Part shown: one piece after another, positions 2,035 through 13,311 of the stretch
Layout: every line of letters begins with the position of its first letter
How positions within the stretch are numbered: the first letter of the stretch is position 1
Assembly: GCA_964035545.1 (NCBI GenBank)
Contig: OZ037770.1
Location: 15,598,642 to 15,662,641, forward strand
Direction of reading: 5' to 3'
From: Bugula neritina
Lineage: Eukaryota; Bryozoa; Gymnolaemata; Cheilostomatida; Bugulidae
DNA length: 64,000 nt
The notes under the pieces: generated by a model
Databases searched by the model: none
What the model was told of the DNA's origin: nothing
What the model saw: the letters and a program-made list of their open reading frames with translations, nothing else
Position numbers and translations under genes: made by a program

Positions 2035-2178
2035 CATATCTCAACTGAGAAATCTTCAAATACTGAATATGTCAGGGAATAGACAGTCTAATAATCTACC
2101 AGATGGTATGTTCACATCTTTACAATCACTGAGAGAGTTGAATATCAGTTACTGTAGACTCCGTACTCTACCAAACAG
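2035..2178 (+). CDS. Exon with two leucine-rich repeats (first)
   Basis: A 144-base exon (48 codons) flanked by TTACAG and GTATGT. It encodes LRR-type sequence ([23 protein letters not shown]). Both ends are in phase 2, so such exons can be added or lost without breaking the frame. Confidence 0.8.
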
Positions 2179-11100: not shown

Positions 11101-13311
11101 CTATTAGTAATTTTCTATAAACATAAATCAATACTCTATGACTGCAGGTGTTTAGTATGACACGTGAAAGAGGAAGAGCTCTTATAATAAACAACAAGAA
11201 CTTTGATAAGAGACCAGATATGTGCAGGAAAGGTTCAGATGTTGATGTTGAGAACATGTCTGCCATGTTGAAAGATTTCAAGTTTGATGTTGTGACCCAC
11301 ACAGACTTGAAAGCGGAGGTATATTTTTATGGTGTAATGTTACTGTTCATGTGTAATGATGGTAAAAAATAAATTTCATCAAGTATTAGTAAGAAAATGT
11401 GTTGAGAAATTATTAATTATTATGTGTTTACACTTTCTTGTTACTTAATCAACAGCCTGGTAAAAATACTCTTTTTTACAAAGTCAAACTATCCCTTCAA
11501 AAAGGAAGGCGCTACTTGACCTAATTATTGCCTTCTGCTACAAATCTTTCCAGACTATTCTGTCTACCATCAAAGATGAAGTACAGCGTAAGGAACACAA
11601 AGATCTGGGATGTCATGTGTTGGTCATCATGACTCATGGAGGTGTAAATAACTACATCTATGGTGTAGACTGGAAGAGAGTCAAGCTCACTGACGTGTAT
11701 GACCTTTTGACCCCTTTGAACTTTCCTGGCATGTCTGGGAAACCAAAGATTGTCATTCTGGAGACATGTAGCGGAAGTAAGTGTGTCTTTTGGAGGAAAG
11801 CGCTGTGAGAGATTTTCAAGTTAATGAAAAACTATCAAGGCTTCACCAACTATCAGTTGTGTTGAATTATTGAATGGAGGAAACAGTTGTTTAGTTGACA
11901 ATCTGGCTGAGAGTGTAGCTTTTCCCTTTGAGTAATTCTAAGGCTCAGCTATAAGAAGATTACCTCAGCTTTCATGTGTAGAAACCATACGTGTTATCTT
12001 TGAGAATTGAGGTTTGCCGAAATTATGACAGAGCAAGTTGATTTCTAGCCTGTGGTAATTAATATATTTGCAGCCAGAATAGATGTTGGTAAGAAAGGCA
12101 TAGACCCAGCATCTGATATTGGAGAAGCTCAGATAGAGGACACTGAAATAGTGTCACCTCCCCCTTCCAGAACGCAGGGAGCTGAAAGTGCTGAGTCTAA
12201 GAGTAAAGAAAACTCAGATGAATTGCTAAGAACTGAAGCTATCACTGAGTGTAAGTATATAATAGCATCTAGTGCTATCCTTAATACTCTTGATTATTAT
12301 CTGTCTATATCTCAAGTATTGGAAATGATTGTGACTTTTGGTGAATCTGCTTCTCTATTCAGACAGTCATTGAAAGTGTATTTTGCAATGTAGCAAATAA
12401 TATTTGGTCAATGATAACAGCTGACAATTTCTATAAGCAGAGTCAGTTTATTTCACAGCTGGAGAAGATGTCGGTGAAGGAGATAAAGCCTCAGCACCAG
12501 AAGCTGAACCAGCTCAGAAAGAGGGTGTAGGGACAGGATCACAACCTCCTGTTGGAGTTCCAGGAGATAAGAGAGCTGAGACTATGGAGAGACTGAACTA
12601 TGATGACCTGCTGGTAGTGAAATCCAGCATGGAGTGTGAGTTTAGTTTGAGTTAGTCAGTTACTCTCTCACACTGCTGTATAGTTATTAGTTCTATCTGC
12701 TTATTGAATGATATATTTATAGTCTAATAACTGTTGTAGCATTCATATCAAAGATACATCCTGTGTATGGTTCTCTAATGATTAGAGCTCTTGTGTCTTC
12801 CATGTATAAACATGCTGGTCACCGTGACCTCTACACTATATTCAAACAGGTGAGTCTTCAAGTTTAACTTCTGTAATGAAACTCACACAAACTCAACCAC
12901 ACCAGATGCAATCGTTACATGTAGTTAAAAGTTACGTTATGATTTAAATCAAATTGTTGCTACTTTTATTTTTATCCGCTAGCTATTTGCCAGTTTCTGT
13001 TTTTTATTCTCTTTATAAGCTAATAGTCTGCATCATGTTACTATAGCAACAATGCTCTAACATTTGTTCACAGGAGCATCAGGTTTTGTACATAGTAACA
13101 CAATACTTGATATTTTACTGGTGAATCTCTAAGATATTGAAGTTTACATATGCAATTATATTTATAGGTGCAGACTAAAGTTAGGAAACTGTGTGTAGAC
13201 AGAAATCTATACGGTGGACAACTGGTTGTAGTCTGGGATACTCTCACTCATATGAGAAAACTCTATCTCTTTCCTGGGTTTAATGGCTCAAAAAGAGCAG
13301 ATAACTCTTAA
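2035..13311 (+). CDS. LRR-Roc-COR-caspase protein (11 exons, 5' incomplete)
   Basis: Eleven exons join in frame: 2035-2178, 2586-2729, 7283-9288, 9729-9821, 10854-11044, 11148-11318, 11554-11776, 12074-12250, 12459-12635, 12740-12849 and 13168-13311. They give about 1,190 residues ending in TAA at 13309. Domain order is leucine-rich repeats, Roc GTPase, COR, an acidic linker, caspase p20, a Ser/Pro/Glu-rich linker and caspase p10. ROCO proteins are large GTPases that dimerise through COR and often carry an effector domain at the C terminus; here that effector is a cysteine protease of the caspase family. The likely role is ligand- or GTP-controlled protease activation in innate immunity or cell death, which is inference. 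All splice phases agree, so the fusion is not simply two adjacent genes. The start is not in the window. Confidence 0.82.
2430..2450. repeat. Poly-C tract
   Basis: About 20 consecutive C in the intron between the two LRR exons. Confidence 0.9.
2586..2729 (+). CDS. Exon with two leucine-rich repeats (second, near-identical)
   Basis: Same length (144 bases), same phases and nearly the same sequence as the exon at 2035-2178. The intronic sequence before it (tacagcatatctc, the att/ttac stretch) is also repeated. This indicates a recent tandem exon duplication that lengthened the LRR array. Confidence 0.8.
2750..3060. repeat. (TA)n microsatellite, about 310 bp
   Basis: Nearly uninterrupted TA units, broken a few times by TTA and by GCC. 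It lies in the intron directly after the second LRR exon. Confidence 0.97.
3062..4437 (-). mobile_element. Penelope-like element remnant, 5' truncated
   Basis: The minus strand carries the C-terminal part of a Penelope-like reverse transcriptase followed by a GIY-YIG endonuclease. A 24-27 base motif containing CGATAAAATTTGAT is present on one strand at 3062-3086 and inverted at 4413-4437, bracketing the remnant. The RT catalytic tyrosine-Asp-Asp-Gly segment can be seen near 4360 but its preceding codon is a stop. Inserted in the intron between LRR exon 2 and the Roc exon, antisense to the host gene. Confidence 0.75.
3309..4160 (-). pseudogene. Penelope-like RT C terminus and GIY-YIG endonuclease
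   Basis: A 283-codon open stretch. Residues of about 1-110 match the conserved linker after the RT (motifs [39 protein letters not shown]). A cysteine-rich segment ([15 protein letters not shown]) precedes the GIY-YIG core [16 protein letters not shown] at about residues 175-190, then KYIWKLK and a terminal CxxC...CRH segment. In this family the endonuclease nicks target DNA for reverse transcription. Upstream of 4160 the RT continues in another frame through about 4370 (the segment [18 protein letters not shown] is legible), so a single-base frameshift separates the two parts. Not functional as it stands. Confidence 0.82.
4488..6967. repeat. Giant (TG)n microsatellite, about 2.5 kb
   Basis: From about 4490 to 6723 the sequence is uninterrupted TG, more than 1,100 units. 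The last 240 bases are punctuated by single C changes (tgtc). All very long open frames here (Cys-Val or Thr-His repeats) are products of the repeat, not genes. The whole tract lies within the intron before the Roc exon. Confidence 0.99.
7283..9288 (+). CDS. LRR end, Roc GTPase and COR domain exon
   Basis: A single 2,006-base exon. The first 75 or so codons finish the leucine-rich repeats ([21 protein letters not shown]). The Roc domain follows, with P-loop [10 protein letters not shown] at about 7590-7620, the switch [11 protein letters not shown] at about 7755-7785 (the usual DxxGQ) and a THKD base-recognition motif at about 7960. The COR domain fills roughly 8050-9080. A Cys/His-rich segment near 9125-9150 (HCGHCLLLG) follows COR. 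The exon ends in phase 1 at GTATGT. The P-loop Lys-Thr and the switch Gly-Gln are intact, so nucleotide binding is expected. Confidence 0.9.
9729..9821 (+). CDS. Linker exon of the LRR-Roc-COR-caspase gene
   Basis: A 93-base exon between TTTTTAG and GTAGAA, phase 1 to phase 1. It encodes a short charged, probably helical stretch ([17 protein letters not shown]). No domain recognised. Confidence 0.65.
10060..10827. mobile_element. MITE with TTAA target duplication
   Basis: Termini are inverted repeats (AGGATTGCTCTATCTT at the left, its complement at the right), perfect for 16 bases and imperfect beyond. TTAA flanks both ends (10056-10059 and 10828-10831), the target duplication of piggyBac-type elements. 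No transposase is present in the 768 bp. The right end lies only 26 bases before the next exon, so the insertion sits close to its branch-point region. Confidence 0.8.
10854..11044 (+). CDS. Acidic linker exon before the caspase
   Basis: A 191-base exon, phase 1 in and phase 0 out. It encodes an Asp/Glu/Ser-rich segment ([15 protein letters not shown]) and then a short stretch that leads into the caspase p20 domain. The acidic run could be a processing or docking region, but I see no defined motif. Confidence 0.72.
11148..11776 (+). CDS. Caspase p20 (large subunit) exons 11148-11318 and 11554-11776
   Basis: The first exon encodes the start of p20: [12 protein letters not shown] and [12 protein letters not shown] align closely with caspase-3 type sequences, including the arginine before (S/K)G(T/S)DVD that lines the S1 pocket. 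The second exon has the catalytic histidine in VIMTHGG and the catalytic cysteine in the pentapeptide ETCSG, where caspases usually have QACxG. The next exon continues with TRIDVG, matching the usual T(E/D)LDxG after the active site. Catalytic His and Cys are therefore present, with a Gln-to-Glu change in the pentapeptide. The exon after 11776 begins at 12074. Confidence 0.88.
12074..12635 (+). CDS. Inter-subunit linker exons 12074-12250 and 12459-12635
   Basis: Two exons of exactly 177 bases, both phase 1 in and out. Both encode Ser/Pro/Glu/Ala-rich low-complexity sequence and start with a related motif ([16 protein letters not shown]), so one may be a duplicate of the other. In caspases the segment between p20 and p10 is cleaved during maturation; Asp residues are available here. 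The second exon ends with [11 protein letters not shown], which is the start of p10. Confidence 0.72.
12740..13311 (+). CDS. Caspase p10 (small subunit) exons 12740-12849 and 13168-13311
   Basis: These exons encode the p10-like end of the protein: [17 protein letters not shown] corresponds to the region after STxPG and before the GSWFIQ helix, followed by [15 protein letters not shown] and a final strand ([10 protein letters not shown]). In typical caspases an arginine five residues before the GS pair binds the substrate aspartate; here a lysine is found one position away, so specificity may differ. Stop TAA at 13309-13311. Confidence 0.75.

What the first reader, a model, noticed from the sequence alone, without database searches (positions are those of the whole stretch)
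2035..13311. A single gene joins LRR, Roc-COR GTPase and a caspase
Eleven exons with consistent phases place a caspase p20/p10 domain at the C terminus of an LRR-Roc-COR protein. ROCO proteins normally end in a kinase, WD40 or death domain; a built-in caspase would give a direct sensor-GTPase-protease machine, comparable in logic to NLR-caspase assemblies. Seen: domains, splice sites, phases. Inferred: function.
Basis: partly seen in the sequence, partly recalled or inferred. Interest (0 to 1): 0.88.

Follow-up and report, generated by a model that had tools for sequence, protein, structure and literature searches.

The report
Bryozoan sensor-GTPase-caspase fusion gene family
In a colonial sea animal, a large family of genes appears to build one protein that joins a leucine-rich sensor, a GTPase switch of the LRRK2 type and a caspase, the protease of cell death; if so, it is a one-piece alarm that could trigger cell suicide.

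Summary
All eleven exons have matching splice borders and phases. Pfam and an AlphaFold model support LRR, Roc and COR; a p20/p10 caspase follows. It is not a lone oddity. The genome, identified here as Bugula neritina (a bryozoan, not a sponge), holds at least 66 copies of the Roc-COR exon. In all 20 paralogues fetched, caspase exons follow on the same strand. The exon-3 donor is kept in 20 of 20; the stop codon behind it is not. P-loop, switch II, catalytic His and Cys are intact in 20 of 20. Two caspase classes sit behind near-identical Roc-COR exons, so sensor-switch and effector modules have been exchanged. Best reading: a one-polypeptide LRR-Roc-COR-caspase receptor, probably for immunity or allorecognition. 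Bacterial analogues are published (PMC8195603); ten literature searches found no animal case. Gaps: no transcripts, no 5' end, 20 of 65 other copies read, and an altered substrate pocket in the window copy.

The parts
2035..2178 (+). LRR exon, 144 nt, phase 2 to 2; one of at least four in tandem, two of them upstream of the window
2586..2729 (+). LRR exon, 144 nt, phase 2 to 2; 81% identical in protein to the exon at 2035
7283..9288 (+). Large exon e3: last LRRs, Roc GTPase (P-loop [13 protein letters not shown]), COR-A, COR-B; phase 2 to 1
9729..9821 (+). Short linker exon e4, phase 1 to 1; weakly conserved
10854..11044 (+). Acidic linker exon e5, phase 1 to 0; no in-frame ATG in this copy
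11148..11318 (+). Caspase p20, first half (e6), phase 0 to 0; keeps the first Arg of the substrate pocket (CRKGSD)
11554..11776 (+). Caspase p20, second half (e7): catalytic His (MTHGG) and Cys (LETCSG)
12074..12250 (+). p20-p10 linker exon e8, phase 1 to 1; in most class-A paralogues one exon matches both e8 and e9
12459..12635 (+). p20-p10 linker and start of p10 (e9: [12 protein letters not shown])
12740..12849 (+). Caspase p10 (e10)
13168..13311 (+). Caspase p10, last exon (e11), with the stop codon
1489..1900 (-). LTR of a retroelement (Gypsy-like by eye) inserted in an intron of the gene; partner LTR at L029 2020-2429, 99.5% identical, no mismatch, one gap
2740..3061 (.). (TA)n in the intron before e3
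4490..6967 (.). (GT)n, about 2.5 kb, in the intron before e3

Best explanation
The locus is one gene of a large family in the bryozoan Bugula neritina. It encodes a single receptor protein: N-terminal leucine-rich repeats, a Roc GTPase with COR-A and COR-B, an acidic linker, and a C-terminal p20/p10 caspase. Shown by sequence: splice-consistent gene structure, domains, intact GTPase and caspase catalytic residues, purifying selection, recurrence in every copy read, and two caspase classes behind near-identical Roc-COR exons. Inferred: the LRRs sense a ligand, GTP turnover in Roc-COR changes dimer or oligomer state, and the tethered caspases are brought together, self-process in the p20-p10 linker and start cell death or an inflammatory cut without a separate adaptor. 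A role in immunity or in allorecognition of colonies is the most likely one.
For: Splice borders and phases. Domains and fold. Listed same-strand caspase hit within 8 kb downstream at 52 of 66 e3 loci and 21 of 23 COR-A loci, none on the other strand. Caspase exons in 20 of 20 fetched loci, three of which had no hit in the truncated list. Donor of e3 20 of 20, both borders of e7 20 of 20, of e10 18 of 18. P-loop, DMGGQ, catalytic His and Cys 20 of 20. Median dN/dS 0.26 for e3 (145 of 210 pairs used, range 0.16-0.46) and 0.21 for e7+e10 (103 of 210 pairs used, range 0.08-1.06). A distant copy (38% in e3) keeps the order e3, e5, e6, e7, e10, e11. Module exchange: one clade for class B is rejected on the e3 alignment, AU p 3.5e-4 (protein) and 9.4e-63 (DNA).
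Against: No transcript was seen. The 5' end and start codon were not found. Pfam COR-A is below its cut-off. Other copies have a Met in the middle of e5 (16 of 16 matches), so an internal start there is not excluded for them. 64 of the 150 listed caspase hits have no listed Roc-COR locus within 8 kb upstream, so stand-alone caspases probably exist too (both lists are cut). The window copy has lost two of three S1-pocket residues (Gln to Glu, Arg to Ile; columns), so Asp specificity or activity is uncertain. No protein with both domains appeared in the protein database: 0 of 42 hits carry PF00656 and none was found with the caspase part, though the contig tools say that records near this genome may be left out. 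Immunity or allorecognition is by analogy only.
Confidence: 0.77

Rival explanations
1. Two neighbouring genes, an LRR-Roc-COR gene ending near 9314 and a caspase gene starting at an ATG in e4, e5 or e6, that were duplicated together many times.
For: The e3 frame meets a stop at 9314, eight codons past the donor. e4 and e6 of the window copy contain an ATG, and e5 of other copies contains one mid-exon (16 of 16).
Against: The e3 donor is kept in 20 of 20 while the read-through stop lies 7 to 45 codons away. The Met of e4 is absent at that place in 10 of 11 e4 matches (several of these matches are weak). The part of e5 before the Met is conserved, and its phase-1 acceptor is kept in 13 of 13. 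The gap from e3 to e4 can be about 100-180 nt (weak e4 matches).
Confidence: 0.08
2. The caspase is altered: it cuts after residues other than Asp or acts without proteolysis, so the fusion is a regulator rather than an executioner.
For: Class-A caspases carry Glu in place of the Gln before the catalytic Cys in 14 of 14 (13 loci plus the window), and the second pocket Arg in only 3 of 12 with e10 read; class B keeps that Arg in 7 of 7 (pocket positions recalled).
Against: Catalytic His and Cys are kept in 20 of 20 and selection on the caspase exons is mostly purifying.
Confidence: 0.3
3. The family serves recognition of kin and non-kin colonies, not pathogen defence.
For: B. neritina is colonial (title of PMC7576161). 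The family is large and recombining. Cell death in allo-incompatibility of colonial animals, bryozoans among them, is named in PMC8195603.
Against: Nothing here tests function; bacterial systems of the same layout are predicted to act against invaders.
Confidence: 0.2
4. Assembly artefact or decaying copies.
For: Repeats and a retroelement lie in the introns. 2 of 66 e3 copies and the distant copy L031 contain a stop.
Against: 64 of 66 e3 copies are stop-free, at distinct places and 58-100% identity. dN/dS is well below 1. The published assembly has QV 53.7.
Confidence: 0.03

Closest known systems
Bacterial AP-GTPase (Roc)-COR conflict proteins with N-terminal LRRs and variable C-terminal effectors, caspase among them (Kaur et al. 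2021, PMC8195603; passages only)
   Same: Order LRR, Roc, COR, effector; caspase is named among at least 24 C-terminal domains; fast-evolving LRRs; varied effectors behind a shared switch.
   Different: Bacterial and predicted from sequence; here an animal gene with introns, an animal-type p20/p10 caspase and dozens of copies in one genome.
LRRK1, LRRK2 and Chlorobium tepidum Roco
   Same: LRR-Roc-COR-A-COR-B fold over the whole of e3.
   Different: LRRK1/2 end in kinase and WD40 (recalled); here the C terminus is a caspase.
Trichoplax ROCO genes with CARD or death domains (PMC4104024; passages only)
   Same: Several animal ROCO genes joined to death-fold adaptors.
   Different: They carry adaptor domains; here the protease itself is in the chain, and no CARD, DED or death domain was matched in the 1192-aa model.
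NLR inflammasome or apoptosome with caspase
   Same: Repeat sensor, NTPase switch, caspase output, proximity activation (inferred here).
   Different: No NACHT or NB-ARC matched; GTPase instead of ATPase; no separate adaptor or pro-caspase.

Membership tests
ROCO (Roc-COR) proteins | Roc GTPase with P-loop and switch II | tested here: met
   Pfam Roc 33.6 bits, cut-off 27; G-x4-GKT and DMGGQ in 20 of 20 paralogues
ROCO (Roc-COR) proteins | COR domain directly after Roc | tested here: met
ROCO (Roc-COR) proteins | GTP binding and hydrolysis, dimerisation | not testable with these tools
   needs biochemistry
Caspase (Peptidase C14) | p20 and p10 with catalytic His and Cys | tested here: met
   C14 9.7e-36, profile 1-212 of 233; p20 aligned to caspases and CED-3, p10 weakly to CED-3 only (three alignments shown); His and Cys in 20 of 20 paralogues and in the window
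Caspase (Peptidase C14) | Asp-binding S1 pocket Arg, Gln, Arg (positions recalled) | tested here: not met
   window copy keeps the first Arg; Gln is Glu and the second Arg is Ile
Caspase (Peptidase C14) | Protease activity | not testable with these tools
   needs an enzyme assay
NLR (NACHT or NB-ARC with LRR) receptors | NACHT or NB-ARC ATPase | tested here: not met
   no such Pfam match up to E 1 in the 1192-aa model; N-terminal exons outside the model were not scanned
LRR-AP-GTPase-COR-effector systems as described in bacteria | LRR, Roc, COR and C-terminal effector in one chain | tested here: met
   continuity rests on conserved splice sites, not on cDNA
LRR-AP-GTPase-COR-effector systems as described in bacteria | Different effectors behind a shared switch | tested here: inconclusive
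   two caspase classes behind near-identical e3, but only caspases were seen in the 20 loci read

The most novel reading that the evidence does not exclude
An animal immune or allorecognition repertoire of more than 70 one-piece receptors (LRR-Roc-COR-caspase; 73 of 89 listed loci already show the caspase), in which the caspase output and the sensor-switch exon are exchanged as cassettes between loci, and one caspase class has left Asp specificity. This would be a GTPase-driven inflammasome in a single chain, and an animal counterpart of the effector-varying bacterial AP-GTPase systems.
Probability: 0.45. Interest if true: 0.92.

Novelty: new variant of a known kind. Interest (0 to 1): 0.83.

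Why it matters
ROCO proteins such as LRRK2 and DAPK are linked to cell death and inflammation, and how the GTPase switch controls an output enzyme is still argued over (recalled). Here an animal seems to have wired that switch straight to a caspase, dozens of times, with modules exchanged between copies. If true, GTP state could be read out as protease activity in a natural protein, animal cell-death receptors would gain a GTPase-based class, and a bacterial design known only from sequence would have an animal counterpart.

Tried and rejected
Sponge or cnidarian origin: rejected by COX1 (100% to Bugula neritina over the whole query, read with table 5; lineage) and by assembly figures that match the published B. 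neritina genome: chromosomes 1, 4, 5 and 6 of 35.64, 24.8, 17.72 and 16.05 Mb. Small differences: 215.85 Mb in 295 contigs are held here, 216.00 Mb in 320 scaffolds were published. A passing idea that AGR codons in COX1 pointed to glass sponges was dropped for the same reason.

Fused relatives elsewhere: the first protein search gave 42 hits among 7993 scored candidates. 18 of them are e3-length proteins (32-77% identity; sources jgi, lgn or ena, no names), and 0 of 42 list PF00656. A search with the caspase part gave 1467 candidates and no hit. Scans of viral contigs and of genome contigs gave three weak matches each, not followed.

Literature: the listings of searches showed no animal LRR-Roc-COR-caspase. 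PMC12909245 (Dysidea avara; passages) lists COR and CASc in a figure legend of NLR architectures; whether they share one protein could not be seen. In the passages seen of PMC13326412, PMC7576161 and PMC11480708 (with outline) the family is not discussed.

5' end: frames in L029 and L030 were listed and read by eye; no domain search was run on them. The likely LRR cap exon (L030 8912-9146, phase 1 in, 2 out) has no identified exon before it. A pattern to list caspase frames in L001-L008 matched in one of eight loci and was not used. One search failed on a wrong frame and was replaced, on a short term and was replaced, and the tblastn step failed on an option and was replaced.

The odds of the two-gene rival went from 0.07 to 0.08 and of the best explanation from 0.78 to 0.77.
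Full report
What is there. Splicing 2035-13311 at the stated places gives eleven exons with AG acceptors, ten GT donors, matching phases and a frame of 1192 residues with its only stop at the end. The protein carries LRRs, a Roc GTPase, a COR-A match below its cut-off and a strong caspase domain. An AlphaFold model of the 668-residue exon at 7283-9288, from an alignment of 19 sequences, has mean pLDDT 82.6. Its best matches are LRRK1, LRRK2 and bacterial Roco proteins, across the end of the LRRs, Roc and COR. The caspase part aligns with the large subunit of many animal caspases, and weakly with the small subunit of CED-3.

Where it is. COX1 on contig C295, read with table 5, is 100% identical to that of Bugula neritina. 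The lengths of chromosomes 1, 4, 5 and 6 match the published assembly, whose abstract gives 216.00 Mb and nine chromosomes. The animal is a colonial bryozoan and the window lies on chromosome 6.

One of many. A search with the big exon scored 66 of 180 first-look candidates. All 66, the window included, match most of the exon (the shortest from query residue 22), and 64 have no stop. In the printed lists, 52 of the 66 have a caspase match within 8 kb downstream on the same strand, 1 has one 2-10 kb upstream, and none has one on the opposite strand nearby. For 23 COR-A matches the figures are 21, 0 and 0. Seen from the other side, 86 of the 150 listed caspase hits lie behind a listed Roc-COR locus and 64 do not. 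The caspase list is cut at 150 rows of 176 matches. The 20 best-scoring of the 65 other copies were then read over 10 kb each. All 20 contain the caspase exons e6 and e7 downstream, including three that the list had missed. A more distant copy on chromosome 7 (38% identity in e3, one internal stop) shows e3, e5, e6, e7, e10 and e11 in the same order.

One gene, not two. First, the donor at the end of e3 is in phase in 20 of 20 copies and its acceptor in 19 of 20 (the last reads N). e7 has both borders in 20 of 20, e10 in 18 of 18; e5 has its acceptor in 13 of 13 and its donor in 12 of 13; e4 was placed in 8 (acceptor 8, donor 6); e8 in 12 (12 and 11). Weaker counts: e6 17 and 13 of 20 and e11 acceptors 10 of 17, where the misses are class-B copies with other exon lengths; e9 acceptors 4 of 12, where one exon stands in place of e8 and e9. 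Second, reading through the e3 donor meets a stop after 7 to 45 codons, so no gene end is conserved there. Third, e5 of the window copy has no in-frame ATG, and the Met of e4 is missing at that place in 10 of 11 e4 matches, several of them weak. Against this: all 16 e5 matches in other copies do contain a Met mid-exon. No transcript was available, so one gene remains an inference from conservation.

State of the parts. P-loop, DMGGQ, catalytic His and catalytic Cys are present in 20 of 20. Median dN/dS is 0.26 for e3 (145 of 210 pairs) and 0.21 for e7+e10 (103 of 210 pairs, one as high as 1.06).

Two caspase classes and exchange. Thirteen of the 20 loci, and the window, carry class A (THGG, E[TV]CSG); seven carry class B (SHG, [QH]ACSG). 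L022 (A) and L020 (B) are 91% identical in the e3 protein and 40% in the caspase. Their DNA aligns from 287 to 2509 at 93.5% and then stops, seven bases past the donor at 2502. Two class-B loci (L020, L021) align over the 6.5 kb compared. Synonymous divergence in e3 is 0.155 for this A-B pair, 0.147 for L020-L021 (B-B) and 0.231 for L018-L022 (A-A). In the caspase it is beyond measure for A-B, 0.045 for L020-L021 and 0.060 for L018-L022. Forcing class B to be one clade on the e3 alignment is rejected. Either the caspase module was replaced, or e3 was copied between loci; in both cases sensor-switch and effector have separate histories. The A-A pair L018-L022 also loses similarity just behind e3, while L014-L016, L013-L017, L015-L023 and L019-L024 run on past it, so copying of e3 itself is likely part of the process.

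Substrate pocket. By the columns the first pocket Arg is kept. The Gln before the catalytic Cys is Glu in 14 of 14 class-A copies. The second Arg is kept in 3 of 12 class-A copies with e10 read and in 7 of 7 class-B copies. The window copy has Glu and Ile. That these positions form the pocket is recalled. Class A may therefore not be Asp-specific.

Upstream. The gene reaches beyond the window. Two further 144-nt LRR exons with the same phases lie in L029, and the exon-intron units of the LRR array share about 85-91% DNA identity over their longer matches, a sign of recent tandem duplication. An LTR retroelement with 99.5% identical LTRs sits in an LRR intron. A likely LRR cap exon lies further up (L030 8912-9146). 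It has 59 matches in the genome, 36 of them 0-25 kb upstream of a listed e3 or COR-A match on the same strand, 23 without one, and none with one on the opposite strand within 25 kb.

How it may work. Inferred: LRR ligand sensing, GTP-dependent change of Roc-COR association, proximity of tethered caspases, self-processing in the p20-p10 linker (lengthened here by an extra exon), then cleavage of targets. The closest published design is bacterial: LRR-AP-GTPase-COR with a variable C-terminal effector, caspase included (PMC8195603, passages). The same paper names bryozoans among animals with allo-incompatibility.

Judgement. A real and recurrent animal architecture that none of my ten literature searches turned up. 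The domain order is known from bacteria, so I file it as a new variant of a known kind. The main gaps are transcripts, the 5' end, the copies not read, and enzyme activity.

Noticed in passing
window 57657-57863 (+): A second LRR-cap-like exon, 42% identical to the one upstream of this gene; another gene of the family may begin near the right end of the window.
   Followed up: partly
window 31351-32160, 41895-42752, 52939-53802, 55139-55966 (+): Four similar open frames of 269-287 aa, no family sought; a local repeated gene family by eye.
   Followed up: no
window about 34400-39300 and 46000-50600: Two regions with broken retroelement frames (Gypsy-like by eye) and high G+C, 0.51-0.57 in most 2-kb blocks.
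   Followed up: no
window 59904-62551 (-): Frames that by eye look like a protein-primed DNA polymerase and a cysteine protease of a Polinton/Maverick-type element (recalled motifs).
   Followed up: no
window 3309-4359 (-): Frames that by eye resemble a Penelope-like element, in the intron before e3.
   Followed up: no
G000 contigs C58, C90, C99, C210 and others: Strong Roc-family matches that run through several TAA/TAG codons on small contigs, as if from a ciliate with a reassigned code among the unplaced contigs.
   Followed up: no
G000:C6:11174072-11175412 (-): A COX1 copy on chromosome 6 scoring almost as high as the one on C295 (433.3 against 435.4 bits): a recent nuclear insertion or a mis-join.
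   Followed up: no
L031 (G000:C7:7657337-7665336): Distant copy (38% in e3) with a third caspase type (AHG, QAC) and one stop near the end of e3.
   Followed up: partly
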